From contig SUVR01000014.1 of the NCBI GenBank assembly GCA_015061915.1, positions 1 to 48,632 of the forward strand: 48,632 bases of DNA. The letters are read 5' to 3'. Positions within the stretch are counted from its first letter, which is position 1, and the number at the start of each line of letters is the position of its first letter. The notes beneath the pieces are model-generated. The model worked only from the letters and a program-made list of their open reading frames with translations, ran no database searches and had not been told where the DNA came from. This DNA is from Lentisphaerota bacterium (GTDB taxonomy: Bacteria > Verrucomicrobiota > Lentisphaeria > Victivallales > UBA1829). The translations under genes and the position numbers were made by a program. Positions 16,943 through 32,697 of this stretch are shown here, piece after piece.

Positions 16943-17989
16943 TCAAAATAGTTCCGGCACCGCTTCCCACTGCCCGGTGAGGGCGGAGCGTTCGATGGCG
17001 TCGGTGATGACCGCAGTCATGGCGGCGCTTTCCACGGAACAGAAGGGGGTCCCGCCGTCCAGTACGGCATCTACAAAGTCCTGAACCATAGGCAGATGCC
17101 AGTTTGGTCGCCCGCCGTCCGTTCCGGTCACAGAGTCTTCCAGCACCTTGTCCGATCCGGGCGTGATGAGCCGGACCGGTGCATCGAAATGGGGCGGACA
17201 CGCCGGAAAAACGATCCTGCCCCGGCTGCAGGTGAAGGAATATGCGTGGTTCAGCGGCACGTTCTGTGCGGTGAAGTTCAGCAGGATCGTGACTTGTTTT
17301 CCGCCGGGGAACCGGAGAATGATGTTCTGCAGATCCTCAATGTCATATTCTGTTTTGTTTTCGCAGTTGAACGAGCTTGCCGCACAGAAGACCGCCTCCG
17401 GATTCCCGAAAAGTTTTTGCGCCATGTTGATGAGATAGAACCCGAAACCGTGTTCCGGATTCGCTCCCGCCGACTTGAGCAGCGGATGATTGCCCGGGTT
17501 GTAATAGCCTTCTTCGTCCTGCATCCAGGCACCCAGCAGTTCGCCGGCGTCCCCGTTTTTCAGGATCGTTTGGAGCGTGCGGAATTGCCTGGTAAAGAGT
17601 CGGTAATTGGAGCAGCCGGTCTTGAGATGAGGCATATTCCGGACCGCCCGGACCGCATCCCGGCACTCTGCGGCGTTGATCCCCAGCGGTTTTTCGCAAA
17701 AGACGTGTTTTCCGGCAGCAAGGGACCGCTTGAGCATATCCACGTGGAGCGGGTGAGGCGTGGCGATATAAACGGCATCCGCACCGGATTTTTCCAGTGC
17801 TTCATCCAAATCATCAAAGGTCAGGCTGACCTGATATTTTTCCGCCAGTTCCAGCGTACGGGTTCTGCGTTTGGAGCCGCAGACCGCCACCAGTTCGGAC
17901 CGGTCTGCCGTGACCAGCGCCGGAGCGACACGGGTGCGGGCAATGTCGCCCGGTCCAACCAGAAGCCATTTCAACACATTTTCCGCCAT
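16943..17989 (-). CDS. Gfo/Idh/MocA-family NAD(P)-dependent oxidoreductase
   Basis: 348 aa from the ATG at 17989 (AAGGA upstream; the open frame extends to 18145 but would cross the promoter and the end of the next gene). The Rossmann motif is GPGDIA (12-17), and EKP (99-101) is the family signature just before the catalytic region. Such enzymes oxidise or reduce sugars, inositols and amino-sugars. The partner isomerase-like protein encoded at 10038 is of the type often paired with them in 3-keto-sugar routes, but the two lie in separate operons, so a link is inference. Followed by an SGNH esterase gene. Confidence 0.9.
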   Translation of the reverse strand: MAENVLKWLLVGPGDIARTRVAPALVTADRSELVAVCGSKRRTRTLELAEKYQVSLTFDDLDEALEKSGADAVYIATPHPLHVDMLKRSLAAGKHVFCEKPLGINAAECRDAVRAVRNMPHLKTGCSNYRLFTRQFRTLQTILKNGDAGELLGAWMQDEEGYYNPGNHPLLKSAGANPEHGFGFYLINMAQKLFGNPEAVFCAASSFNCENKTEYDIEDLQNIILRFPGGKQVTILLNFTAQNVPLNHAYSFTCSRGRIVFPACPPHFDAPVRLITPGSDKVLEDSVTGTDGGRPNWHLPMVQDFVDAVLDGGTPFCSVESAAMTAVITDAIERSALTGQWEAVPELF

Positions 17990-18018
17990 TGGAGTTCCTT
18001 TTCGTTTTGTCTGCAGAT

Positions 18019-18046
18019 ACGATACACGCAGAAACGGAAAACGCAA
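18019..18046 (-). promoter_or_regulatory. Promoter of the Gfo/Idh-SGNH operon
   Basis: On the minus strand TTGCGT (18041-18046), 16-bp spacer, TATCGT (18019-18024), 30 bp before the ATG at 17989. It lies just beyond the stop of the 1392-aa gene. Confidence 0.55.
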
Positions 18047-18083
18047 TATCCGTAAAGAGCATTTTTTTATCTTTTTGTATGTT

Positions 18084-21000
18084 TCAGAACGGGATGAAGA
18101 AGATATGCCCGGATTTCTTACCGGTCTTCTGATCCGTTTCCACATTGACCACCCGCCAGAGGAAGGAGAACGATTCTTTCTGCGGGTCTTTGTGTGTCTT
18201 CACAAAGGGGAAGTAAAGCCGGGTCTGTTCGGTGGGGGTGATGCGGGAGCGGTAGAGCCAACCGAGAACACTGGTATTTTCTTCGCCGTTGGATTGTTTT
18301 TCGTACTTGGCAAGGAGTCCGCCGCCCAGCCAGAAGACTGTCCGGTTCCGGCTGGACGCGTAACGGTACAGGAGCTTGCCGAAGTTGCCCCGTTCGTAGA
18401 AGTCGCAGCTTTCCACGTGCTGATCAAAAAGCTGTTTCCGCAGGAGCTGACGGCTCTTCCAGGTGGCGAGATGGCTTTCCGGCAACTTCAGTTTTTTCAT
18501 ACACTTCCGGATTTTTTCCCAGTATCCCTTGTGACGTTTTGGTTCTTCAAAGAGATAATTCCTGTCGAGCAGGTTGTAAAGATTTTTCACTTCTTCCGGC
18601 GTCTTGTTTTTCCAGTAGAGGACCTTTCCGTAGTGTCTGGCGGCGACAAGCAGGATCCGGCGGGATTCATCCTGATAGCCGGTGATGTCCAGATCGCCGT
18701 TCAGGAATTTTTCTTCATCCCAGCCGGAGAGAATGAGATCGGCGTCGGGCAGACCGGAGAGGAAGCGCACGTTCATCGGATCATCATATTTTTTTCCCGA
18801 GCTGGCGGAATAGAGCAGCCCGCAGAGGATCTTTGTGCTGGAGGCGGAGTTGTTTTTCCAATACCAGGAGAGGAGCGGCGGCAGGATCAGGTTGGATCTT
18901 CTGCCGGATTCCGTGCCGGAATAATGGATCAGGGGCGCAATGCCGAACCCGTATTCCGTATCCGGTTCGTAATAGTGATCGGCGTGATATTCCCGGTAGA
19001 ACTTCATGGTATCCGCGGCATTTTCCGGTACAGCGCAGGAAAGGGTACCGTCTGCCAGTGTGAACTGCTTTTTCAGAGTCCGGACCACATCATCTTTCTC
19101 AGACTTCTTTGTCTGCGGATCGATCAGCTGCCGGATGTAATAAAATGAAAGATATTCCGTAAATTTCTGTTTGTGCGCAAGGGTCGGGATAAAATGATCA
19201 TTTCGGAACGAGTAGAAGAGCAGACCGCCCCAGCAATAAGTCTTTTTCCGTTTCTCGTGCTGGAACTGCCCGTTCAGATGCCAGGTTTCTGTCAGGAAGC
19301 CGAAGGGGCCGAGAATGTGGAACGATTCTTCCTGTTTCTCTTTTTCATACCCGGAAAGCAGAGAGAGCAGGGTGAAATCCCGATTCCCCTCGGTGTCGCT
19401 CCCGGCAGTAAAGATCACGGGTGTAAGCACATCGGTGCGGGTGGAAGTGACGGGCTGGTAGCGTTCCGCCTGTTTGTTCTTCTGATAGAGGGCGCGGACT
19501 TCATCCTCGTTTTTCGGGATCGCCGGATAACTTTCCGCAGCGGGATCCTGTTCCCAGAGCCGGACAACCTGTTCGATCTCCCATTTCCGGATGTCCTTCG
19601 GATTGGTCAGCAGCAGCCGTCTCCGCAGGTTTTCGGAATCAAAAGTCTGCCAATTCTTTTGAGTTTCGGGTGTCGGTTTCCAGAAGGTATCGACCTTCTG
19701 TCCGGTCAGGAACGCATAGCGTTTGCGGGTGGTATTCTGTTTCCCGGCGACTCCTTCTGTTTTGGAATCTTCCGCAAAATATCCCAGCTTCCCGAAGATG
19801 GAGAAATGATCGGAAGTCCCCGTTTCATCCTTCGTTTCTTTCTGCTTGTAAACTGTTCCGAGCAAAATAGATGTGCTGTTCTGATCTGTTCCCTGCGTCA
19901 CATCCAGGAAAGGATACATCCCCTTGCTGTTCTGTTTCTGATCCCGGAACTGATCCGGCGCCTCCAGACGGTCCAGCGCTGCCTTCGCCTCTGCCACGGA
20001 CTTGGGAGTGGGGGCGGGGTTGACGGGATCTTTCATCCATGCGGTAACGGTGTATTCCCGTTCCCAGTTTGCGATCTCTCCGGCATCGGTGAGACGCAGG
20101 CGTCTGGTCAGCAGGTGCGGCAGAACACGCTCCGATTCCTTTCCGGAAGCGGCGGTGCGGATCCGGCTTTGCTCATCGTTGTTGTATACGAAGAAGATAC
20201 AGGTGTTTTCCTTTTGGAACTGCTGACCGTATTTTGCATCCGCTACGCTGCGGTCGATCCGGTGATAATACCCCAGCGGTCCGAGAATGTGGGTCAGTTC
20301 CCGGGTGGGGGAATAACGGAAGGAGGCGAGGGCGCCCAGCAGCAGATCGGTCTGTGTTTCATCGCTGTCCGTCATCCGGTGGAAGAAGGGAGCCACGCCG
20401 AACGCGCGTTTTTTCTTGAGCTGAAAATGTTCCGTTTTGTTCATTTCATCCAGCAGTGCCTGTGCTTCGGCGGCGGTCTTGGGGACCTTGACCGTGGAGA
20501 ACGGCGTCAGGATGCGGATCTGGCTTTCCACATTTTGCTCCCAGACTTTGATCGCTTTGGGATCGGTGAGGATCATCCGGCGGCGCAGTTCATCTTCATC
20601 GATCCCCCAGAACTGGTCTGTGGCGGATTTTTTCCGTTCGTACCGGTCATGTTCCTTTTTGTAGGCGAGGAGACTCATCTGGAAGTCGGAGCGGAATTTT
20701 TCCCGTTCGTAATCTCCCTCTGCAAATTCCATTTTGCGGAGATAACCGAAGGGCCCGAGGATGTGGAAGAAGTGTTCGTAGGGTGCGATCCGGCTCCGGA
20801 AAAGCAGATTCATCAGCAAGCCCGTGTCCGTGGTGAGCCGATCGCCTTCCTGAATGGATGTCTGCCGGAAGAAGGGGAAAAGGGTGCGCTTCTTCTCTGT
20901 GACCGGGACATAATGCTTCGGATCTTTCAGATCTTTCAGGAGCGCTTCGGCTTCAGCGGCAGTTTTCGGCGTGGGCAGAACAGCGGTCCGGTAGAGCGGG

Positions 21001-22262
21001 CGGCTGTAAAAATGGTTCCAGATGCTGGTGCTTTTGCTGTGTTTCATCAGCTCTGCCTGCTGTTTTCCGAATCCTTTTTCCCACTCCTCAATATCCTTCG
21101 GGATAACGAGATAAGACCGGAGGATCAGCTGATCGGGATCGATTCCCTGAAAACGGAACGCGGCTTCCGGTGTCATCTGCCAATATGTCTTTGTCTGATC
21201 GTGCCACAGGAAGCCGACAACGTGCCGGAAAGTATCTGCCGGATCCACAGCGAACTTGCCCCGTTTCCGTTCGTGTTCCCGGTTGAACAGCCACAGGAAG
21301 ATACTGTTCTGATCTTTTGCCGGGGTCCGGACCGCCTTTGCGCCCAGCCCGAAAAGCAGATTGAACTTGTACGAATCCCGGAACGAATTGTAATGGAAGA
21401 AGGGGAACAGCCCGAACCAACTTTCTTTTACCGTGGTTGCGTTCTTGTCGAAACGATTTTGGAAAAACCGGTAGAATGTATTGGAATGAAAATCATTCTT
21501 CCCGGTCTCTTTGAAGTATAAATTTTTTTCGATCAGCCAGTTGTGCAGGATCTGGTCCGGATGATCCGGCGGGAGGGTCCGGAAATGATTGTATCCGCCG
21601 TACCAGAGCAGTGCATAATACCAGAGACTTTTTCCGACTTTTTTCGTCATGGAATACGTATCATCCGGCAGACGGTTCCGGTTGCAGCGCCATTGATAAA
21701 AATCATGATCCGTGATCTTCATGGAAAAGATCCAGGAGTAGAACTCCCGTTCATCAAAGTAACAGAGGGGGAAGAACATTCCTTCCCGGTCGAAGGACCA
21801 GAGCAGGGGGAAGAACCCGAAATTTGTCTGCGCCCCGTGATTCGTGTACCACCAGATGGGACCGATGTACTTGATATCATTTTTGTTCGCACTGTAATGG
21901 AACAGTGGGAATGTGCCGTAATACTTGTCCGGTTTGTTCCAGTAAACGATCCCGCACCAGCCGTCGCCGTTCTGCGGATTGGTGGCGAAAAGCGGGAAGA
22001 GGAAGGACCATTCGTTGCCTTCTTTGTTCACGATCGGACGTACGGAAAAGCCCTGTTTGTCCCAGTCGATGAACGGGTAGAAGACGGACCGGTAATCTTT
22101 GGATGCGATGAAGAAGGGCCACAGGTTGATGGCGTTGCCATCCACAGCATTGTGACGCTGCAGGACGTGTTCGGAATTGACGCGTGACAGCCGTTTGGAG
22201 GTGGCACAGGAGGCGGTGCAGAGCATGACACCGGTCAGGATCAGCAGCAGAAAATGTTTCAT
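18084..22262 (-). CDS. Very large repeat lipoprotein, unknown function
   Basis: 1392 aa. A lipoprotein signal ends at Cys19 (TASC). The N-terminal ~190 residues hold many short aromatic units of the form F-P-[LF]-[FL] or G-P-[LI] (for example at 49, 63, 89, 118, 134 and 151). From ~275 on, a repeat of about 160 aa recurs. Its landmarks are a PFF/LLFGL-like hairpin (287, 462, 625, 784, 948, 1109), a Pro-Lys-TAAEA segment (432, 594, 753, 917), an HILGP-type motif (500, 658, 821, 982), and an R-R-x-LTDPK-x-I-x-x-WE segment (381, 560, 720, 881). No catalytic motif or family is recognised. Composition and layout suggest stacked beta-hairpins on the cell surface or in the periplasm. It is monocistronic with a near-consensus promoter at 22303-22331. 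The coding strand is certain: signal peptide, promoter and repeats agree. Confidence 0.88.
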   Translation of the reverse strand: MKHFLLLILTGVMLCTASCATSKRLSRVNSEHVLQRHNAVDGNAINLWPFFIASKDYRSVFYPFIDWDKQGFSVRPIVNKEGNEWSFLFPLFATNPQNGDGWCGIVYWNKPDKYYGTFPLFHYSANKNDIKYIGPIWWYTNHGAQTNFGFFPLLWSFDREGMFFPLCYFDEREFYSWIFSMKITDHDFYQWRCNRNRLPDDTYSMTKKVGKSLWYYALLWYGGYNHFRTLPPDHPDQILHNWLIEKNLYFKETGKNDFHSNTFYRFFQNRFDKNATTVKESWFGLFPFFHYNSFRDSYKFNLLFGLGAKAVRTPAKDQNSIFLWLFNREHERKRGKFAVDPADTFRHVVGFLWHDQTKTYWQMTPEAAFRFQGIDPDQLILRSYLVIPKDIEEWEKGFGKQQAELMKHSKSTSIWNHFYSRPLYRTAVLPTPKTAAEAEALLKDLKDPKHYVPVTEKKRTLFPFFRQTSIQEGDRLTTDTGLLMNLLFRSRIAPYEHFFHILGPFGYLRKMEFAEGDYEREKFRSDFQMSLLAYKKEHDRYERKKSATDQFWGIDEDELRRRMILTDPKAIKVWEQNVESQIRILTPFSTVKVPKTAAEAQALLDEMNKTEHFQLKKKRAFGVAPFFHRMTDSDETQTDLLLGALASFRYSPTRELTHILGPLGYYHRIDRSVADAKYGQQFQKENTCIFFVYNNDEQSRIRTAASGKESERVLPHLLTRRLRLTDAGEIANWEREYTVTAWMKDPVNPAPTPKSVAEAKAALDRLEAPDQFRDQKQNSKGMYPFLDVTQGTDQNSTSILLGTVYKQKETKDETGTSDHFSIFGKLGYFAEDSKTEGVAGKQNTTRKRYAFLTGQKVDTFWKPTPETQKNWQTFDSENLRRRLLLTNPKDIRKWEIEQVVRLWEQDPAAESYPAIPKNEDEVRALYQKNKQAERYQPVTSTRTDVLTPVIFTAGSDTEGNRDFTLLSLLSGYEKEKQEESFHILGPFGFLTETWHLNGQFQHEKRKKTYCWGGLLFYSFRNDHFIPTLAHKQKFTEYLSFYYIRQLIDPQTKKSEKDDVVRTLKKQFTLADGTLSCAVPENAADTMKFYREYHADHYYEPDTEYGFGIAPLIHYSGTESGRRSNLILPPLLSWYWKNNSASSTKILCGLLYSASSGKKYDDPMNVRFLSGLPDADLILSGWDEEKFLNGDLDITGYQDESRRILLVAARHYGKVLYWKNKTPEEVKNLYNLLDRNYLFEEPKRHKGYWEKIRKCMKKLKLPESHLATWKSRQLLRKQLFDQHVESCDFYERGNFGKLLYRYASSRNRTVFWLGGGLLAKYEKQSNGEENTSVLGWLYRSRITPTEQTRLYFPFVKTHKDPQKESFSFLWRVVNVETDQKTGKKSGHIFFIPF

Positions 22263-22302
22263 AACAACTCCTTAAAAGAGAGATTCAAGCCTTTCAACGG
22301 TT

Positions 22303-22750: not shown

Positions 22751-22778
22751 TTGATTTTTTGTGAGGTGGGGCTATATT
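22751..22778 (+). promoter_or_regulatory. Promoter of the deacetylase-like gene
   Basis: TTGATT (22751-22756), 16-bp spacer, TATATT (22773-22778); GGAG at 22795-22798 precedes ATG 22808. Confidence 0.7.
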
Positions 22779-22807
22779 AACGCAACTGCAACCCGGAGTG
22801 TGAAAAC

Positions 22808-23740
22808 ATGAGCAAAGTTCCCATCAGCTTGATCATTGACGACGGCGGCGTTGTCAATATGTACCATTACCACGATCTGACCCATAAGCACGAACAGCTT
22901 GTGCCGCCTGCGTTTACCATGGAGTTCGGGAATATCTGCCGCAAACACGGGGTCCGGGGCAAGTTCTCCGTGGTGCCGATCCCCGCCGGTCTGGGGCGTC
23001 TGGACGAAAAGAACAAAGTCAATGGCGTGGACCCGGCGCAGATCGATTCCTTTGTCCGGATCTGCAAAAAATATATCATGCCGGACTTCTCCATCACGCC
23101 GGAGATCCTGACTCATTTTCTCGCATGGAACCTGAAACGCTCCTGCAACATGCAGATGTGTGAAGATGTTTATTTCAGCCATCTTACCGCAGAAGAGATC
23201 GCGGATTACGTGACGCTTTCCCTCACGATCCTGAACAATCTCGGCTTGAATCCCACCGGCGTCACTTCCCCCTGGTACACCGGCGGCGACAACGAGGACA
23301 ACTACGCGAAGGGCATCGGCATGGCGTTCAAACGGGTCTTCAACAAAGAGAGCTGTTACTACTTTATGCACACGGACGACCACATCCGCAAGCCAACGGT
23401 CATGTGCGATACCCCTGAATCCGGCAGAGTTGTGACCATCCCTGCCACCTGCAACGTGGATCCCTTCTGGGACACCCAGAACCCAATCCCCGTGGCGAAG
23501 GCGCACCGGAATGTGCGGGAGCTGATCGACTATTACATTACTGCCGACGGCAGATCCGGCAAGTTCCGCGAACTTTACGAGGAAAACCGCCCCATGGTCT
23601 TCTACACCCATTGGCAGAGCCTCTATTCAGACGGACGCGGCATCGGTCTGGAAGGGCTGGACGCCCTCTGTACCCGCCTGAAAAAAGTCTTCGGCAGCAA
23701 CATTGAGTGGACAAAGTTTGAAGATCTGAACTGGGATTAA
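22808..23740 (+). CDS. Polysaccharide deacetylase-like (NodB-fold) protein
   Basis: 310 aa. The start LIIDDGG with Asp11-Asp12 resembles motif 1 of the NodB/CE4 fold; GVTSPWY (151-157) resembles the motif-3 loop and FYTHWQS (His268) the late His motif. The expected zinc-binding HxxxH is not obvious, although HEQ and several His near 20-28 could take part. Hydrolysis of an N-acyl sugar or a related reaction is therefore plausible but unproven. There is no signal peptide, so it is cytoplasmic. Single gene with its own promoter, followed by the palindrome-rich region at 23791-24011. Confidence 0.7.
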   Translation: MSKVPISLIIDDGGVVNMYHYHDLTHKHEQLVPPAFTMEFGNICRKHGVRGKFSVVPIPAGLGRLDEKNKVNGVDPAQIDSFVRICKKYIMPDFSITPEILTHFLAWNLKRSCNMQMCEDVYFSHLTAEEIADYVTLSLTILNNLGLNPTGVTSPWYTGGDNEDNYAKGIGMAFKRVFNKESCYYFMHTDDHIRKPTVMCDTPESGRVVTIPATCNVDPFWDTQNPIPVAKAHRNVRELIDYYITADGRSGKFRELYEENRPMVFYTHWQSLYSDGRGIGLEGLDALCTRLKKVFGSNIEWTKFEDLNWD

Positions 23741-24090: not shown

Positions 24091-27000
24091 TTACTGTTCC
24101 AGCTCGATACATCCGGCATTTTTGATCCGGATGGAGGGTGTGAACGTCTTGAAGTCCTTCAGATCCAGTTTGTGACGGTTCACACCGATGGTGACCGCCC
24201 GGAGCTTCACGGGCATATCGATCACCTTGTCACCACCGCAGCTGATCCACTGCTGCATGGCAACGCCGGGGCTGTGGGTCGGCAGCATGAAGGATTTGCC
24301 GACCGTCTGGTAGACAAAGCTCCAGCCATCGAAGTTGACCGAGGTATTGCCGGGCCAGTCGTAGACATCGCAGCCCCAGTCCGGACCGGTGGACTGCCCT
24401 TTGAAGATCTCACCCTGGGCGTCTTCGATCTCGAAGCGGATCTGACCCCAGTTGGAGTCGCCTTTCACCCAGATCCCAATGACTCCCGGCGTGCCTGCCA
24501 CCGGTGCCGGTTCGTTCAGCCGGATCGTGGTGTACTCTGTGAAATACTTGGTCTTATAGGGATCCGCAGCAGTATTCAGCGTCACCTGCAGACAGTTGCC
24601 CATCTGTTCATCCTTCACCTGTTCCAGTTTGAAGTCGCCCGGTTTCAGGATGGGAAGATTGCGCACAAAGATGGCGCTGATCTTTTCATCCGGCGCCATG
24701 GTGACTTTGCGGATGTCATCAAATGCCGCCACCGTTTTTGCTTTTGCGGCAAGGGCTTTGTCCGCTTTGAAATCTCTGCCGGTGATCTTGACGGAACGCA
24801 ATGGCGTTTTGGAAAGCAGGTACACCGGAGAGGTGCCGCCGCTGACTTTGACCGTCTTGCCGTTTTCGGTCCGTTTCTGTCCGTACATTTCTGTGACACG
24901 CAGGGTGCCGGCGGGATTTTCCACCGTGAATTCCACTTCGCCGCGGGCGCTCCAGAGAGCCGTGGCGTAAAGGCCATCGTGACGCTTGAATTCCAGTGCG
25001 TAGACCGTGGTGGAACCGGTGGGGATCTGGCGGCTGAACGTGACGCCATCCATCACATTGGTCAGTGCCGCATACGCCACATAGGCACGCTTGGGATAGA
25101 CATAAGGACCGCGCTGGAGGATGCCGGAGCCGCCCCAGAGTCCGTTGTAGTACCCGCGGTCGCAGTCAAAGAAAAGACCGGGGCTGACCAGTACGAAGTC
25201 GTGGGAGAGGGAGATCAGGGCGTCACGCATATACCATTCCGCCTGGATCTGTTCGCCCATATCCCGTTCGCAGCGATAGACAAATTCATAGCAGCCGTTC
25301 AGCTTGATGTCTCTGCCGCTGAGCGTTTTTGCCGCATCTTTGGTAATGAGCATTCCCTGCAGACCCACTTCCTGCAGTTTTTCCGGCGGGATCACCTGGG
25401 AGGGTGTTTCGATCCCGATATAGTCGTAGTAATCCGGGTTCGCACCACCGCGTACCGGACGGGTGAAGCAGCCCAGACTGTAGGAGCTGTTGCCCATCTG
25501 CAGTTTGATCTGCGGGAAGTGCTTGCGCATAAGGGCGCCGATGGTGTTGATGTAGATCCCGAAGTTCTTATCCGTCTGGGAGGGAATGCCTCTTTCGCCG
25601 GTGGTCAGTTCCGACGGGACGCCTTCGCCCGGTCCGGATTCGTGCCAGATCATTGCCTGGATCACCTGATCCGGGTGGATGTCCCTGATGGCATTTCTCA
25701 CCCCTTCGATCACCCATTCTTCGCCGGGGATAACTTTCCGGATCTTTTTCTTCGGGTTGGCAGGATCCGGAATGTCGATTGTTTTCGGCTTGAATTCCCG
25801 CTTTTCATAGTCGAATACACGGTATCCGTGCGGCAGATAGATAAAGCCCGGACTGCAGATTCCGTACTTCTCCTGTTCCGCCGGACTCATGCTACCGGTG
25901 GGCTTGCGGATCCCCGCTTTTTTCAGGAGCGGGCCGCCAAGATCCATGGATCCCGGGGAGCCGTGGGCGCCGCGGAACCACCAGGTGCCGAAGGGGACTT
26001 TATACTTATTTGCGGTGCGTTCGTCCTTGCCGAGGACCGCAAACCGGGCGGGGTGAGTGACGAGCGTTCTGCCGTCTTTATCCTGCAGTTCCATCGTCAG
26101 ATCGTAGTAGCCGATCGCCTGCTTGCCGAAGGGGATCACGATTTCGGTTTCGCTGCCGTTTTTGGCAAGAGTGAAGGCCTTGCTGCCGCTGAATACGACC
26201 TTGCCGTTGATGTCTTTAGCGGTCCAGACAAGTTTCCCGGCGGCGTTGTCCTGTGCGGCTTTCAGCACCACGCGGGTCTCCTGCACGGTCTCATCTTCTG
26301 TGAAGACGTTGCCCGGCGTGATCTGTTTGGGGATCATGGCGACCGGTGCTTTTTCCAGCGTGATGGCAAAGATGTTGAACGCACTCTTTACATTGGGATC
26401 CGGTTTGTGACGGCGGTCCAGCTGTTCCAGATTTTCCTGTCCGGCACCGTGGAAATCCAGGTCCAGATGATCCCGGGTCGTGTGGTGATCGAGGATCTTA
26501 CCGGAATCCAGTTTGATCGCGGCACGGTACAGGGGAACGGTTTTTCCCTTGATCGTGGCGGTACCGATCTGCTGTACATTGGCGGGCAGTTTACCGGAAC
26601 GCAGATCCAGTTTGGTATGGCCGATCTGGTTTTCACCGACGCCATAGGGGGAGGGGGTGTAAGAACTGATGTTTGTGGTCAGGATCGCTTCTTTTGCCGG
26701 ATCGGGATCCAGCGCAAAGATGATGTGTGCCGTGTGATACAGCGCCGGAGTCAGACGGAAATGGACGGAGCTGGGCAGGTTGTCCGAGGGGCTTCTGCCA
26801 CTGTAATTTTCACATTCCAACGCCCAGTTACCCTGTCCCTGACGGCAGATCGCAATGTCGGCGGAGTCCATCGGTGCTGCCACATCAAAGGGAATGGCGT
26901 TGATGGTCTGAACGCCGGGCTTCAGGCTGAGTTTGCCGTCCGCAAAGGCTTTTGCCCGGGGATTGGCTGCCAGATCGACGGGGGTAAAGCGGTTGGTGTC

Positions 27001-28482
27001 GATTTTGTTGTACCGGAAGGGAATGGCGACGGCTTTGGCATCTTCGCCCGGTTCAAAGGTAATGCTCAAAAGTTTGGCAAAGGGCAGTTCCTTGAGCTGT
27101 TTTTCCGCTTTTTCCAGAGAAGCCTTGAGCTGGGCGTTCCGTTCTGCGGTGTTGTTTTTATTGCGCAAATTGGCTTTGCAGGAGCCGATTTCCTTGCGCA
27201 GTTTCGCTTCCAGAACAGGATCCACATTCATATAGATCCGGCGGTTGTAGCTGCCGTCCAGCCAGACTTGAACACGCTTGTTGCTCTGCGTGATAAACTC
27301 AATGTCCATCTCGTGTGCGGAGGCGGCGGGCAGCGTATCCCAGTCCCGGATGAGGTCGGTATATTCCGGGATGGGGCTGTTGCCCATGAACTGGGAAAGA
27401 TTGGGGCGCACATATTGCTGGAGTTTGGTCACATCCTTGCCGCCGAAAACGATCATGGTGTCATTCAGGGGAACGCGGGTGCCTTTGGGCTTATCGCCGG
27501 CGAACGCCGCCGCTGTGCTGTGAGAGAATCCGGCGGCACTGACCTGATATTCCTGTGTAATGCCGTTATCCCATTTCAGCTTCAGTTTGCTGGTGGATCT
27601 GCCCGTTTTGAAACGCAGAGCAAGACGGTCCTTCCCCGCAGTCAGGGAGATCGGTTTTCCGGTTGCGCCCGGAATATCCTGCTGCAGACTGCGGTAATCT
27701 GCAAACCAGTCAGCGGCAGGTGTCTGTGCAAGCGGTCTGGGATCGGTGACCGTGAGATTGGTCACTTCATACACGTGATCCGGATGGAAACGCAGGTTGG
27801 TGCCGGTCAGTTTTCCGGAGAACGGCACTTCACCGATCGGAATGTATTTCCGGTCGACGGAGGCAAAAACTTTCATCGTTTTGCCGTCGGCTTTCAGATG
27901 CACTCCACCCCAGTTCCGTTTCGGGAGGAACGGATAAGGCATGACCGTGTCCCCGATGGTAACGCTGTCATTGGCGATGGTCACAAGCACGGAATCTTTG
28001 CCGTTCATGGCAAGGACAAGGTCAAATTTCTTGCTGACGCCCGGTTTCGCCGGGACAGCAGCTTTGGTGATGACTTCTTTTCCCTTGACGAGCTTGGTCT
28101 GCGCCGGTTTGGCGGGGACCGGATCTGTGGAGTTGCCGGGACGGAATTCCAGCGAGCAGTCAAAAACGGTCAGACCGGGCAGCATTGCGAAGCCGTCGTA
28201 GAGCAGTCGCGGCTGGGCATCCGCCTGGATGGTCGCCCGGACGCCGGACCGGTTTGCCCAGATCGGATCATTGAAGAACCAGAGTCCTGTACGGTCAGAC
28301 ACGCCGGGAACATGGTCATCGTAATTGCCGAAGTTTTCAAAGAAATAGACTCCGTTTCCGGGCTGGACGAATGAGATCGGTTTTTCCAGATCCAGACCGG
28401 CGGGGTTGGACGAACAGGCAGAAAGGAACAGCAATGCGCTGAACAGACTGCCGGACAACAGGGTTCGTGTGGATAAAGTCAT
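24091..28482 (-). CDS. Very large multidomain lipoprotein with glycosidase-like core
   Basis: 1463 aa from the ATG at 28482 (GAGG upstream and a promoter at 28525-28552; a longer frame would run into the promoter). Lipobox LSAC with Cys23. Residues ~30-260 look like a beta-sandwich that could bind glycans; ~290-420 a second beta domain; 422-466 a coiled coil; ~550-815 further beta domains, the last Ig-like (~735-815). Residues ~825-1150 look like a clan-A-type TIM barrel: IWHESGP with Glu948 is placed like an acid/base and YIGIETPS with Glu1025 like a nucleophile. The C-terminal ~300 residues hold more beta structure ending in a jelly-roll-like segment. A surface-anchored polysaccharide hydrolase is the best reading; no numbered family is assigned. 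Monocistronic, ended by the terminator at 24026-24063. Confidence 0.82.
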   Translation of the reverse strand: MTLSTRTLLSGSLFSALLFLSACSSNPAGLDLEKPISFVQPGNGVYFFENFGNYDDHVPGVSDRTGLWFFNDPIWANRSGVRATIQADAQPRLLYDGFAMLPGLTVFDCSLEFRPGNSTDPVPAKPAQTKLVKGKEVITKAAVPAKPGVSKKFDLVLAMNGKDSVLVTIANDSVTIGDTVMPYPFLPKRNWGGVHLKADGKTMKVFASVDRKYIPIGEVPFSGKLTGTNLRFHPDHVYEVTNLTVTDPRPLAQTPAADWFADYRSLQQDIPGATGKPISLTAGKDRLALRFKTGRSTSKLKLKWDNGITQEYQVSAAGFSHSTAAAFAGDKPKGTRVPLNDTMIVFGGKDVTKLQQYVRPNLSQFMGNSPIPEYTDLIRDWDTLPAASAHEMDIEFITQSNKRVQVWLDGSYNRRIYMNVDPVLEAKLRKEIGSCKANLRNKNNTAERNAQLKASLEKAEKQLKELPFAKLLSITFEPGEDAKAVAIPFRYNKIDTNRFTPVDLAANPRAKAFADGKLSLKPGVQTINAIPFDVAAPMDSADIAICRQGQGNWALECENYSGRSPSDNLPSSVHFRLTPALYHTAHIIFALDPDPAKEAILTTNISSYTPSPYGVGENQIGHTKLDLRSGKLPANVQQIGTATIKGKTVPLYRAAIKLDSGKILDHHTTRDHLDLDFHGAGQENLEQLDRRHKPDPNVKSAFNIFAITLEKAPVAMIPKQITPGNVFTEDETVQETRVVLKAAQDNAAGKLVWTAKDINGKVVFSGSKAFTLAKNGSETEIVIPFGKQAIGYYDLTMELQDKDGRTLVTHPARFAVLGKDERTANKYKVPFGTWWFRGAHGSPGSMDLGGPLLKKAGIRKPTGSMSPAEQEKYGICSPGFIYLPHGYRVFDYEKREFKPKTIDIPDPANPKKKIRKVIPGEEWVIEGVRNAIRDIHPDQVIQAMIWHESGPGEGVPSELTTGERGIPSQTDKNFGIYINTIGALMRKHFPQIKLQMGNSSYSLGCFTRPVRGGANPDYYDYIGIETPSQVIPPEKLQEVGLQGMLITKDAAKTLSGRDIKLNGCYEFVYRCERDMGEQIQAEWYMRDALISLSHDFVLVSPGLFFDCDRGYYNGLWGGSGILQRGPYVYPKRAYVAYAALTNVMDGVTFSRQIPTGSTTVYALEFKRHDGLYATALWSARGEVEFTVENPAGTLRVTEMYGQKRTENGKTVKVSGGTSPVYLLSKTPLRSVKITGRDFKADKALAAKAKTVAAFDDIRKVTMAPDEKISAIFVRNLPILKPGDFKLEQVKDEQMGNCLQVTLNTAADPYKTKYFTEYTTIRLNEPAPVAGTPGVIGIWVKGDSNWGQIRFEIEDAQGEIFKGQSTGPDWGCDVYDWPGNTSVNFDGWSFVYQTVGKSFMLPTHSPGVAMQQWISCGGDKVIDMPVKLRAVTIGVNRHKLDLKDFKTFTPSIRIKNAGCIELEQ

Positions 28483-28524
28483 CCATATACCTCGTAATGT
28501 ATGATGTTTCGGGGGACTTCCCAC

Positions 28525-28552
28525 ACTATACACCATCTCCCTGAAATGTCAA
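28525..28552 (-). promoter_or_regulatory. Near-consensus promoter of the 1463-aa lipoprotein gene
   Basis: On the minus strand TTGACA (28547-28552), 16-bp spacer, TATAGT (28525-28530), 43 bp before the ATG at 28482. It fixes the gene start because the longer open frame would begin inside it. Confidence 0.8.
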
Positions 28553-28581: not shown

Positions 28582-29784
28582 TTACTTCTGCTCCGGTTTG
28601 GGAATGGTCATAGCGAACAGCGTGTTGAAGACCGCCATAACTGCTGCAAAAGTGAAGAGATAACCGATCCCGAACCGGACCCAGATCCACCCGCCTGCAG
28701 GGGCGGAAAGAATGGCGATCAGGTGGTTGATGGAGATCCCTGTGGATAGCGTGGAGGTCAGCTCCTCCTGATTTTCTGCCAGACTGCGGACATAGATATT
28801 GGTTGCAAGGGAGGTCGTGCTGAGAATCGCATCCAGCACATAGTTGACCGCCACGACCCGGAATGCGATCTGCCCGGGGAAAAGATCTCCGGCGAAACCG
28901 TAAAGGAGGCAGACAAAGGACAGCACCACCGTGTCCCAGATCATGGTGTTGCGGTAGCCCCATTTATCCGTGAGTTTCCCGATGGCAGGGGCGGCAAAAA
29001 CATTGATCAGTGCGCAGAGCCCCAGCAGCGTTGCCATGGATGCCGTGGAAAAACCGTACTCTTTGATCAGCACAAATGGGGCGAACGTAATGAAAATCTG
29101 CTTCCGGGCACCGTAAAAAAGTTCCAGTGCGTAGAACTTGTTGAACTTCCGGTTGAAGTAGAGCCGGGGACGCTTGCCGGGAGCGTCGGGAGCATCTTTT
29201 GTGAAGGTGCTGATGGTACTTGCCAGCATAAGAACAATGATCACGCCCCACAGAACATTGAAAAGAAACGCCTCGGACCGTTCAAAACAGCGTGTCCCGA
29301 TAAAAAAGATCCCCGCCACCAGCAGACTGCCCGCCACGTGACCGAAGTTCATCACACTGGTGAGAAGTCCAAGCGATTGTCCGGCACAACCCGGTTTTGC
29401 CACCTGCATCGCCACAGTCGCCCGGCTGGGCATGACCAGATGTTCCCCCATACTCCAGATCATGATGAACGCTGTTACCGCGATCTGATTTGCCGGGATC
29501 AGCAGCAGCGCCGCGCCTGCCATGGAGATCATCGTGCCGATCCGGATCACTTTCCAGTCGCTGACCTTGTGCAGCAGCGCCAGAATCAGAACCAGCGCGA
29601 GCCCCGGCAGCTCCCGGAAAAACTCCAGCCAGCCCCGCTCCATGCTGTCCATGTGGTAAATATCGGAGAGATAATTATTGAGTGCGGCGGCGAAGCTGCC
29701 GATCCCGATCCCCCAGAGGAGGATACTGAAGAAAAATGCACCGGCACCGGAGTCCGGCTTGAAAGAATCTTTGATCGTGGGCAT
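28582..29784 (-). CDS. Major facilitator superfamily transporter
   Basis: 400 aa with about twelve membrane helices. The loop GKLTDKWGYRNT between helices is the MFS motif A in its second-half form; the first half has a degenerate counterpart (VSDWKVIRIG). N- and C-terminal halves are separated by a basic cytoplasmic segment (DAPGKRPRLYFNRKF). Substrate unknown; sugars, sugar acids and drugs are all possible. It begins 43 bp after the stop of the polytopic membrane protein and shares its strand, so it may be the third gene of that operon, with an unrelated role. Confidence 0.88.
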   Translation of the reverse strand: MPTIKDSFKPDSGAGAFFFSILLWGIGIGSFAAALNNYLSDIYHMDSMERGWLEFFRELPGLALVLILALLHKVSDWKVIRIGTMISMAGAALLLIPANQIAVTAFIMIWSMGEHLVMPSRATVAMQVAKPGCAGQSLGLLTSVMNFGHVAGSLLVAGIFFIGTRCFERSEAFLFNVLWGVIIVLMLASTISTFTKDAPDAPGKRPRLYFNRKFNKFYALELFYGARKQIFITFAPFVLIKEYGFSTASMATLLGLCALINVFAAPAIGKLTDKWGYRNTMIWDTVVLSFVCLLYGFAGDLFPGQIAFRVVAVNYVLDAILSTTSLATNIYVRSLAENQEELTSTLSTGISINHLIAILSAPAGGWIWVRFGIGYLFTFAAVMAVFNTLFAMTIPKPEQK

Positions 29785-29827: not shown

Positions 29828-31732
29828 TTATTCCTGCATCAGATCTGTCACTGCGCCGGTGGAAAGATCGGTCAGTTCCACGGTTGCGTTATGGAACGAA
29901 ATCAGATAGCGGTATCCCCGTTCCTTTACCTGACGCAGGGCTTCTTCGTGGGAGATCTTCCGGATCCCGGCGTTTTCATAGGCATCCAGCCCGTAACTGT
30001 AAACGCCGCTGCGTTTCGGAATGTATCTGATCCGTTTCGCAGGATCATTGTGATGCAAATAACTGAAAAGTTTTCCATCCTCAAAGTAAAAGGCGTTCAG
30101 TACCGGCACACCGAGATACGCCTGCACCAAAACGGTTGTTCCTATAGCGTCTCTTTTGAAGGTCAGGGGGGCTGTCTCATCCATAAAGCAGAGTGTTTCC
30201 TGCGGATGCTGCCGGGTAAACTCCCGTGCCTTATTCATTGCCCGGTAAAAAGGAGATGCAGTGACCTGCCGGGCAGCCGCTCTGGATTTGATGCTGAACC
30301 GCAGTTGAGTTGCGCAGTGCATCAGCCCGCGCATCCCTCCGAATACAATGATAAAGAGGATGATGCACTTGCAGAGGTCGGACCGCAGCAGTTTTTCCGG
30401 GATTGCAAAGCCGCAGCAAACCAGGACCGCGATGCAGTAGGGAATAAGGTAGAAGTAGATTCCGCTTCCGCCGTGAAAACTGATCAGTAACGGCGGGATC
30501 CATAGCGCTGCGGTCAACGCAAGCAAAATGTTGCCCCAGCATTGTTTCCCGCTGAAGATTTCCCGGAAGGACCATTTTGTTTCATGCAAGACCAGCAGAA
30601 CCGGCAGGAAGGTGATCACAAATCCCCACATGCGTTCCGGCGTTTTCACCCATTGCAGAAACGCCCACTGTTTGGCTTGGTATCCGCCGAGAACAGAGGT
30701 CTTCAGGATCAGCAGGAAAAGAACACAGAGCAGCCCGGCATAGCAGATCTCTTTCCAGAGAAAACGGGAATATTTCCCTTTGGTGAAGAGCCAGATACAG
30801 GTCGCACCTGCCACTGCACAGCCGCAACTGATCTTGGCAAGCGTACAGAAGAACAGGATCAACGGTAATAACAGCACAAAAAACAGACTGCGGAACCATT
30901 GCCGTTCAAACATCCCCTTCCGGATCATCCGCAGAACGAAGATCATCGAAAGGAACAGTACAACGAACCCCGCCGCCATGCTGTGAGAAATAATTATGCT
31001 CGGAATCCGTAACCCCATGGGATAACTGTATGCCACATAGAAGGTCCCCAACAGCAGCGTCGGTACCAGAAACAGATCAAAAAGATTCAGATCCCCATTT
31101 CTGCCGGTGAAAAGTTTGATTTCTCTGACCAGTTTCAGGGAGATGAAGCAAAGGAGTGGTGCCGCCAGCAGAGGATAGACAAAACAGAGCAGCACATGGA
31201 CCGGGATCCCGGTCAGTTTCGAGAGGAAACCGAAACAATAATTCACCCCCGTGTGATAGCGCAGAAATGCCGGATCCGTGTGATTGATGCTGGGGTAACC
31301 GTAGCTGACAACCGATTCACCAACTGCGGAGTGATACATATTGTCAATATATTCCAGACCGTTGAAATAGCAATAATACCGGAGCTGCCCTTCCAGTACA
31401 AATATCTTTTCATAAAACAGCAGAGCCCCCACCGCAGCCCCGGAAAGAAACAGGGTGAGCAATGTCTGCCGGGAAAAGAGCTTACAGCCGTTTTTTAACA
31501 ACAGCCGGAAAAAGCAGAACCCGAATGCTGCCAGAATGACCCCCTGCAGACACAATGTTTTTGCGGCATAAACATTACCAACCCCCGCAAGCAGCGGCAG
31601 AAAGATCACGGTAAATGCCAGCGCCATAGAGAAAAGCAGTCCTTCTGCAAACGGATAGGTCTTCGCTCCGGGAGCAGTAATGCCACATTGTTGTTCGAGC
31701 CAGTTGAAACAAGTCAGAAAAGTCTTTTTCAT
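29828..31732 (-). CDS. Polytopic membrane protein, GT-C glycosyltransferase-like
   Basis: 634 aa. About ten to thirteen membrane helices occupy the first ~470 residues, with an external loop between helices 2 and 3 (residues ~90-145, NGLEYIDNMYHS and SINHTDPAFLRYHTG). A soluble C-terminal domain (~480-634) follows. GT-C enzymes use polyprenyl-phosphate sugars and carry acidic residues in an early external loop; the Asp and His residues in this loop are compatible but not diagnostic. Its start is 14 bp after the stop of a GtrB/DPM1-like gene, which makes polyprenyl-phosphate sugars. Together they suggest a system that transfers a sugar to an envelope polymer on the outer face. No sequence family is recognised with certainty. 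Confidence 0.75.
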   Translation of the reverse strand: MKKTFLTCFNWLEQQCGITAPGAKTYPFAEGLLFSMALAFTVIFLPLLAGVGNVYAAKTLCLQGVILAAFGFCFFRLLLKNGCKLFSRQTLLTLFLSGAAVGALLFYEKIFVLEGQLRYYCYFNGLEYIDNMYHSAVGESVVSYGYPSINHTDPAFLRYHTGVNYCFGFLSKLTGIPVHVLLCFVYPLLAAPLLCFISLKLVREIKLFTGRNGDLNLFDLFLVPTLLLGTFYVAYSYPMGLRIPSIIISHSMAAGFVVLFLSMIFVLRMIRKGMFERQWFRSLFFVLLLPLILFFCTLAKISCGCAVAGATCIWLFTKGKYSRFLWKEICYAGLLCVLFLLILKTSVLGGYQAKQWAFLQWVKTPERMWGFVITFLPVLLVLHETKWSFREIFSGKQCWGNILLALTAALWIPPLLISFHGGSGIYFYLIPYCIAVLVCCGFAIPEKLLRSDLCKCIILFIIVFGGMRGLMHCATQLRFSIKSRAAARQVTASPFYRAMNKAREFTRQHPQETLCFMDETAPLTFKRDAIGTTVLVQAYLGVPVLNAFYFEDGKLFSYLHHNDPAKRIRYIPKRSGVYSYGLDAYENAGIRKISHEEALRQVKERGYRYLISFHNATVELTDLSTGAVTDLMQE

Positions 31733-31746
31733 CGGAAGAATACCTC

Positions 31747-32697
31747 TTATTCGTTTTCAGAGGAATGTTCGGTTTTTCGGGCAACGAGGTACAGAGGACG
31801 CTGCTTCATTTCATTATAAATACGGCTGATGTACTCCCCCATAATCCCGAGGCAGAACAGGATCAGTGCATTGAATCCGGTGATCAGTACAACCAGACTC
31901 AACCAGCCCGGCTCCAATTTGTGCGGCTGGAAAAACCAGCAGTAGCCGTTATAGACAAGATATCCCAGGCAGATCAGGAGGAAAATGCCGGAGAAGTAAT
32001 AGGCGATCTTCAGGGGCAGATCGGTGAAGGAGAAGATCCCGTCCATGGCAAGATCGATCATTTTTTTCAGAGAATATTTCGTCGTGCCGGCAGAACGTTC
32101 CTGCCGTTCAAAGTACACCGTATCCGTTTTGAAGCCGCACCAGCCGACCATTGTCCGCAGAATTCTTGCCCGTTCCCGTAAAGTCAGCAGAGCATTCAGA
32201 CTGTTCCGGTTCATCAGCCGGAAGTCGGCGCAGTTTTGAGGGGCTGTGGTTTTGCAGATCTTCTGCTGGGTGGCGTAAAATAACTTCGCCGTTGCCCGTT
32301 TGAAAAATGTATCTTTTTCCCTTTGGGACCGCACGGCAAAAACGATGTCGGTGCCCTGTTCCCATTTTTCGATCATCCGGGGAATGACGGTAATATCATC
32401 CTGAAGATCGGCATCAAAACTGATCATGGCATCGCCGGTGGCATGGTCATAACCGCAGGTCAGCGCCAGTTGATGTCCGAAATTGCGGGAGAGCATAATG
32501 CCCCGGACGATCGGATCTTCCACGCTCCAGTCCGTGATGATTTGCCAGGTCCGGTCTGTGCTGCCGTCATCAACAAGAATGATCTCCAGATCATATGATT
32601 CCCTTAACATATCGCAAATCGGCGTCAGTTCGCATTTCAGCAGAGGGAGTGAATCCTGTTCATTGTAACACGGAATTACAAATGAGATTTTTTTCAT
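31747..32697 (-). CDS. Family 2 glycosyltransferase, GtrB/dolichol-P-mannose synthase-like
   Basis: 316 aa. The GT-A domain shows CYNEQDSL (10-17), VDDGSTD (42-48) and the metal-binding DADLQDD (95-101). The QERSAGTTKYSLKKMIDLAMDGI segment and two C-terminal membrane helices are the hallmark of GtrB/DPM1 enzymes, which load a sugar from a nucleotide donor onto undecaprenyl phosphate. First gene of the operon: promoter at 32739-32766, and the next start lies 14 bp after its stop. Confidence 0.92.
   Translation of the reverse strand: MKKISFVIPCYNEQDSLPLLKCELTPICDMLRESYDLEIILVDDGSTDRTWQIITDWSVEDPIVRGIMLSRNFGHQLALTCGYDHATGDAMISFDADLQDDITVIPRMIEKWEQGTDIVFAVRSQREKDTFFKRATAKLFYATQQKICKTTAPQNCADFRLMNRNSLNALLTLRERARILRTMVGWCGFKTDTVYFERQERSAGTTKYSLKKMIDLAMDGIFSFTDLPLKIAYYFSGIFLLICLGYLVYNGYCWFFQPHKLEPGWLSLVVLITGFNALILFCLGIMGEYISRIYNEMKQRPLYLVARKTEHSSENE

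What the first reader, a model, noticed from the sequence alone, without database searches (positions are those of the whole stretch)
18084..22262. 1392-aa lipoprotein built of about 160-aa repeats with no recognised family
At least four units of 158-164 aa share the order PFF-hairpin, TAAEA segment, HILGP motif and LTDPK-x-I-x-x-WE segment; the front part is a dense series of short FPL[FL] aromatic units. A near-consensus promoter and lipobox show it is an expressed, exported protein. Size, repeats and absence of catalytic motifs suggest a surface scaffold, adhesin or glycan-binding solenoid of a new type.
Basis: seen in the sequence. Interest (0 to 1): 0.65.

Follow-up and report, generated by a model that had tools for sequence, protein, structure and literature searches.

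The report
Tandem-repeat beta-sheet outer-membrane lipoprotein
This gene encodes a very long fat-anchored envelope protein, built from repeated hairpin modules, that belongs to a widespread but nameless protein family of Lentisphaeria and related bacteria; it looks like a structural or binding scaffold rather than an enzyme.

Summary
Window 18084-22262, minus strand, encodes a 1392-aa lipoprotein with four tandem units of 160-163 aa (pairwise z mostly 11-27), plus two degenerate copies and an aromatic, FPL-rich N-terminal domain. It is under purifying selection (dN/dS about 0.28). No Pfam, NCBIfam or PDB sequence match.

It is not an orphan. A shared N-terminal domain defines a family found in 92 of 198 genomes of the class and 94 of 388 sampled in the phylum, usually one copy. 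Members share lipobox, N-domain, variable middle and C-domain; sizes run 398-1392 aa. The units expand a module the family already has: the unit profile matches 33 of 59 other members, versus 1 of 59 reversed and 0 of 843 unrelated ORFs.

AlphaFold models of a homologue (pLDDT 82) and of units A+B (pLDDT 61, weak) are antiparallel beta-meanders of short strands with helical inserts. The best structural matches are single-layer sheets: CPAP TCP domain, apoB, MORN1, OspA. Hairpin links alternate between a hydrophobic edge (FPL/LPL/LGP) and a polar edge.

Most likely it is an outer-membrane-anchored scaffold or binding sheet, not a solenoid or enzyme. Localisation, partner and function are untested.

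The parts
18084..22262 (-). whole gene, 1392 aa lipoprotein
   Evidence: ORF and translation; single copy in own genome; purifying selection against sister genome
22303..22331 (-). sigma-70-like promoter TTGACA-N17-TACAGT with TG before -10, 10/12
   Evidence: chance expectation about 1 per kb, so suggestive only
22268..22273 (-). ribosome-binding site AAGGAG
   Evidence: read from sequence (printed)
22206..22262 (-). signal peptide and lipobox, residues 1-19 (lipid Cys19)
   Evidence: lipobox-like motif found in 99 of 101 family proteins
22179..22208 (-). conserved tether motif after the lipid Cys, residues 19-28 (CATSKRLSRV; family consensus CASSERMxRxS)
21687..22139 (-). N-terminal family domain, residues 42-192, WPFF/FPLF strands with period 14.5
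21024..21434 (-). degenerate unit 0, residues 277-413
   Evidence: 33 bits against unit profile
20493..20978 (-). repeat unit A, residues 429-590
   Evidence: AF2 weak
20013..20492 (-). repeat unit B, residues 591-750
   Evidence: AF2 weak
19524..20012 (-). repeat unit C, residues 751-913
19035..19523 (-). repeat unit D, residues 914-1076; the copy that aligns with the module of other family members
18543..19034 (-). degenerate unit E, residues 1077-1240; aligned to nearly all family members
   Evidence: weak z to B and D; occupancy
18087..18542 (-). C-terminal family domain, residues 1241-1392, ends SFLWRxx...GHIFFIPF
   Evidence: AF2 of homologue pLDDT mostly 82-95 here

Best explanation
It is an outer-membrane lipoprotein whose chain, after the lipid cysteine and a short basic tether, forms a very long antiparallel beta-meander of short strands, interrupted by helical inserts and built from tandem copies of a ~160-aa module. 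Links at one edge of the sheet are hydrophobic (FPL, LPL, LGP, LWP); links at the other edge are polar (DG, KN, EN). I think it works as a non-enzymatic scaffold: the lipid holds it to the outer membrane, the hydrophobic edge packs against a partner (its own inserted helices, another copy, or another envelope protein), and adding modules lengthens the sheet. Shown: gene, repeats, family, lipobox, absence of known catalytic domains. Predicted: sheet fold and two-edged pattern. Inferred: outer-membrane location, scaffold role.
For: Repeats and their controls. Family of constant layout and variable length. Lipobox in 99 of 101 members, Ala at +2 in 51 of 74 distinct motifs and in this protein; LolA and Omp85 present in the genome. 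AF2 of a 749-aa member, pLDDT 81.9 and pTM 0.60, mostly strands of 4-10 residues, with best matches CPAP TCP10 Z 12.6, apoB100 Z 11.1, MORN1 Z 10.6 and OspA Z 9.6. The same list for window units A+B: 11.7, 10.4, 10.3, 9.9. Link-plus-flank hydropathy over 31 sequences alternates in sign along the chain, e.g. residue 655 +0.55, 664 -1.9, 674 +1.2, 684 -2.3, 692 +0.1, 702 -2.4, 710 +2.0, 719 -2.4, 727 +0.7, 737 -1.6. No enzyme or known domain in 25 members. Precedents for a binding or assembly role: CPAP TCP binds a proline-rich peptide along one sheet edge through aromatics (PMC3776556), and MORN arrays dimerise through aromatic and hydrophobic contacts (PMC7725318).
Against: Foldseek gives no convincing global match (query TM 0.04-0.15 for the homologue, 0.07-0.29 for A+B); VIA Z of 9-12 with rmsd 5-9 A may reflect only a common arrangement. 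The unit A+B model is weak (best of five 60.7, the others 38-48). The conserved N-terminal domain is not confidently modelled. Whether the sheet closes could not be checked, as no coordinates were available. No conserved neighbour points to a partner.
Confidence: 0.45

Rival explanations
1. Transmembrane outer-membrane beta-barrel with very many strands (a pore or transporter) that is also lipidated.
For: Amphipathic beta-meander with aromatic residues, protein ends in Phe; barrels (LptD, BtuB, FadL, porins, VDAC) appear among the structural matches; Omp85 present.
Against: Strands are mostly 4-8 residues in the better model, short for a membrane span; barrels score below single-layer sheets; many members carry polar residues after the IPF/FPY end (e.g. 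GNRPGKD), unlike a terminal beta-signal; length varies 398-1392 aa.
Confidence: 0.15
2. Lipid-binding belt: the hydrophobic edge dips into or carries lipid, like the amphipathic beta-belt of apoB, at the inner face of the outer membrane.
For: apoB100 is the top Foldseek hit for the homologue (E 1e-3) and VIA Z 11.1 and 10.4; hydrophobic edge; basic tether after the lipid.
Against: Foldseek alignment to apoB has TM 0.13 and rmsd 29 A; hydrophobicity lies at strand ends rather than on one face; the proposed lipid binding of MORN1, a comparable sheet, was re-evaluated critically (PMC7725318, title and abstract).
Confidence: 0.15
3. Surface adhesin or glycan-binding protein: exposed aromatics bind polysaccharide, and modules were multiplied for avidity.
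For: Tandem expansion, aromatic content 15%, genome neighbourhood with polysaccharide genes (GH123, GDSL, Gfo/Idh).
Against: No carbohydrate-binding domain by profile; neighbours are not conserved across the family; no sign of surface export was tested.
Confidence: 0.2

Closest known systems
CPAP/Sas-4 TCP10 (G-box) domain
   Same: Best structural match for both models (Z 12.6 and 11.7); single-layer sheet of about 20 antiparallel strands that binds a partner along one edge (PMC3776556)
   Different: Eukaryotic centriole protein, domain under 200 aa, no lipid anchor, no helical inserts; no sequence similarity found
MORN repeat proteins
   Same: Meander of hairpins with 6-residue strands (PMC7725318); Z 10.6 and 10.3
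   Different: 23-aa units with GxG and YEGEW motifs; no MORN profile hit in 25 members; here the unit is about 160 aa with helices
OspA of Borrelia
   Same: Lipoprotein (own knowledge) with a single-layer beta-sheet; Z 9.6 and 9.9
   Different: Small, not built of large tandem modules; no sequence match
beta-flower / Tubby-like clan (PF21784-PF21786, CL0395)
   Same: Short hairpins, some members with lipobox, aromatic edges (PMC10584680)
   Different: Closed 8-12-strand shallow barrels of about 100 aa; no profile hit in 25 members
NCBIfam NF047486, LA_1737 family
   Same: Weak local similarity in three members, best E 7.6e-5
   Different: 22.7 bits against a cut-off of 60; none in P0001 or its genome

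Membership tests
Lipoprotein family defined here (Lentisphaeria and relatives) | Lipobox followed by conserved tether | tested here: met
   CTASC-ATSKRLSR; family consensus
Lipoprotein family defined here (Lentisphaeria and relatives) | N-terminal WPFF-LWP-DxD-GFAVRP-LFPL-GDGW domain | tested here: met
   E 3.7e-29 to a profile built without the window protein; 1.3e-33 to one that includes it
Lipoprotein family defined here (Lentisphaeria and relatives) | C-terminal FPF-SFLWR-GHIFFIP domain | tested here: met
MORN repeats | 23-aa unit with GxG and YEGEW motifs | tested here: not met
   no MORN profile hit in 25 members at E 0.5
MORN repeats | single-layer meander of hairpins | tested here: inconclusive
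   VIA Z 10.3-10.6 but rmsd 6-7 A
CPAP TCP10 domain | single-layer sheet of about 20 strands | tested here: inconclusive
   Z 12.6 and 11.7, rmsd 7-9 A
CPAP TCP10 domain | sequence homology | tested here: not met
   no PDB sequence match and no Pfam match in 25 members
beta-flower (CL0395) | match to PF21784-PF21786 | tested here: not met
beta-flower (CL0395) | closed shallow barrel | not testable with these tools
   model coordinates are not returned
outer-membrane beta-barrel | membrane-spanning strands of 9 or more residues | tested here: inconclusive
   strands mostly 4-8 residues in the L107 model, 5-11 in the weak window model
LA_1737 family NF047486 | score above curated cut-off of 60 bits | tested here: not met
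   best 22.7 bits in a relative, none in own genome
outer-membrane lipoprotein | lipobox, no Asp at +2, Lol pathway present | tested here: met
   Ala20 after Cys19, LolA in genome; rule taken from E. coli, localisation itself not tested

The most novel reading that the evidence does not exclude
A new class of bacterial repeat protein: a single-layer beta-sheet with one hydrophobic edge, tethered by a lipid to the outer membrane, whose length is set by the number of ~160-aa modules, and which runs along or beneath the membrane as a structural belt in Lentisphaeria and related classes.
Probability: 0.25. Interest if true: 0.75.

Novelty: new variant of a known kind. Interest (0 to 1): 0.5.

Why it matters
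The envelope of Lentisphaeria and its sister classes is little studied (own knowledge). A lipoprotein found in about half of the class genomes searched, usually as one copy, with no Pfam model and no NCBIfam model above cut-off, is a good candidate for a part of that envelope. The family profile and module boundaries given here make it testable, and the length series (398 to 1392 aa) is a natural experiment on what module number does.

Tried and rejected
Conserved operon partner: clustering of neighbours in Lentisphaeria loci and in 20 distant loci found none shared widely at a fixed position. Enzyme or toxin domains: the GNAT, PIN and DUF7449 hits in P0001 are far below cut-off. Tiling the whole protein with an iterated module profile looked good, but reversed sequences reach 31 bits with that profile, so it reads a meander pattern, not homology; only the uniterated unit profile is used as evidence. 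Automatic tip/base labels by link hydropathy alone mislabelled AA, GA, AN, TPL and FAGGG links; the hydropathy of link plus flanks was used instead. A check whether the CASSERM tether is specific to the family failed for lack of lipoproteins to compare (4 found). LptD was not detected in the genome, which proves nothing about LPS. Pfam matches of the 25 members to 14 families, one member each, are chance. Bridge-like lipid-transfer grooves (AsmA/TamB, RBG repeats) were considered from memory because of the ~160-aa unit, but did not appear among the listed structural matches; that absence is not proof. No paper on the LA_1737 protein was found in the library.

Full report
Observation. The gene lies on the minus strand at 18084-22262 and encodes 1392 aa. 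It begins with a signal peptide and lipobox ending at Cys19. Four units of 160-163 aa follow one another from residue 429 to 1076, with pairwise alignment z mostly 11-27 (C-D only 1.9); against their own profile they score 213-234 bits, and weaker copies lie at 277-413 and 1077-1159. The front part is rich in WPFF/FPLF strands, with 11 such tetrapeptides in the protein against 2.2 expected and a strong 14.5-residue period. The repeat region has a weaker 23-residue period and the C-terminal domain an 18.5-residue one, both just above the 99th percentile of shuffles. Against a sister genome dN is 0.026 and dS 0.090, a ratio of about 0.28, and every unit has a ratio below 0.5. A promoter-like site lies 41-69 bases upstream, but is not clearly beyond chance.

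Not an orphan. The window protein matches 40 of 61 relatives, chiefly through residues 40-190 and the last 100-150. A profile of the N-terminal domain hits 92 of 198 genomes of the class, 37 of 86 genera, and 94 of 388 genomes sampled across the phylum, including families outside the class. Named loci are almost all Lentisphaeria (Victivallales, Victivallaceae, Lentisphaeraceae), many from rumen or gut, with one MAG labelled Planctomycetota. Most members outside the class keep the same plan, many with a tether reading SMKGTPFYTGEY or similar. Complete members range from 398 aa (L116) to 1392 aa; the window protein is the longest seen, and the 1392-aa form was found only in its own genus (two genomes).

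Origin of the repeats. In an alignment of the window protein with 32 members, residues 909-1392 are covered by nearly all of them, while units A-C are covered by few: A-C look like extra copies. The profile of units A-D matches 33 of 59 other family proteins at E 1e-3 or better, 1 of 59 reversed ones and none of 843 non-family ORFs. A profile-profile comparison with the module of the 750-aa group gives probability 73%, E 3e-5 over 71 columns. So the repeats are most simply a lineage-specific expansion of the family's own module.

No known sequence family. P0001 has no significant Pfam, NCBIfam or PDB sequence match, 25 members have no credible Pfam match, and a 31-sequence profile finds nothing significant in PDB. 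Three members show a weak match to the LA_1737 family of NCBIfam, far below its cut-off; none is found in the window's genome.

Structure. AF2 of a 749-aa homologue (31 sequences) gives pLDDT 81.9 and pTM 0.60: antiparallel strands mostly of 4-10 residues with tight turns, plus helical inserts; the conserved N-terminal domain is modelled poorly in part. Units A+B of the window give pLDDT 60.7 (other models 38-48): a helix, eight strands and helices in A, and the same order beginning again in B. For both, VIA-align ranks single-layer sheets first: CPAP TCP10, apoB100, MORN1, OspA. Foldseek finds no strong global match. Coordinates could not be inspected, so whether the sheet is open or closed is not settled.

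Two-edged sheet. Along the homologue's model the links between strands alternate: hydrophobic (FPL, LPL, LWFL, LHLL, FPF) and polar (GD, GA, KG, GT, KN, EN). Averaged over 31 sequences, hydropathy of link plus flanks alternates in sign through the uninterrupted C-terminal run. One edge of the sheet is therefore hydrophobic and rich in proline and aromatics, the other polar. This is the feature I find most distinctive.

Location. A lipobox-like motif is present in 99 of 101 members; the residue after Cys is Ala in 51 of 74 distinct motifs and in this protein. The genome has LolA and Omp85; LptD was not detected. By the E. coli rule this points to the outer membrane; localisation itself is untested.

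Function. There is no known catalytic domain, no conserved partner gene, and a length that varies freely. That combination suits a scaffold or binding sheet. The CPAP TCP domain, which binds a proline-rich peptide along one edge of an open sheet (PMC3776556), and MORN1, which dimerises through aromatic and hydrophobic contacts (PMC7725318), are the closest working models. A lipid-binding belt, a surface adhesin and a membrane barrel remain rivals.

Verdict.

Noticed in passing
window 24091-28536, minus: 1481-aa predicted lipoprotein (LSACSS lipobox) with only a weak Mannosidase_ig match, upstream of the finding; another large uncharacterised envelope protein.
   Followed up: no
window 22772-23611, minus: 279-aa ORF with no Pfam match; its translation looks like an antisense reading of the + strand ORF 22808-23740.
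   Followed up: partly
window 16943-18145, minus: Gfo/Idh/MocA ORF overlaps the end of the lipoprotein gene by 62 bases; an in-frame Met (MAENVLKW) suggests the true start is near 17992, leaving no overlap.
   Followed up: partly
window 29828-31732, minus: 634-aa multi-span membrane protein without Pfam match, beside a GT2 glycosyltransferase (31747-32697) and an MFS transporter (28582-29784).
   Followed up: no
L130:4949-8518 and L130:8558-10669, plus: Two family genes in tandem outside the class (1189 and 703 aa) with similar N and C ends but different lengths of middle part: length variation after duplication in one genome.
   Followed up: no
L117:7653-11042, plus: Family member in a MAG labelled Planctomycetota, with its own FPL-rich repeats; transfer or misbinned contig not examined.
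   Followed up: no
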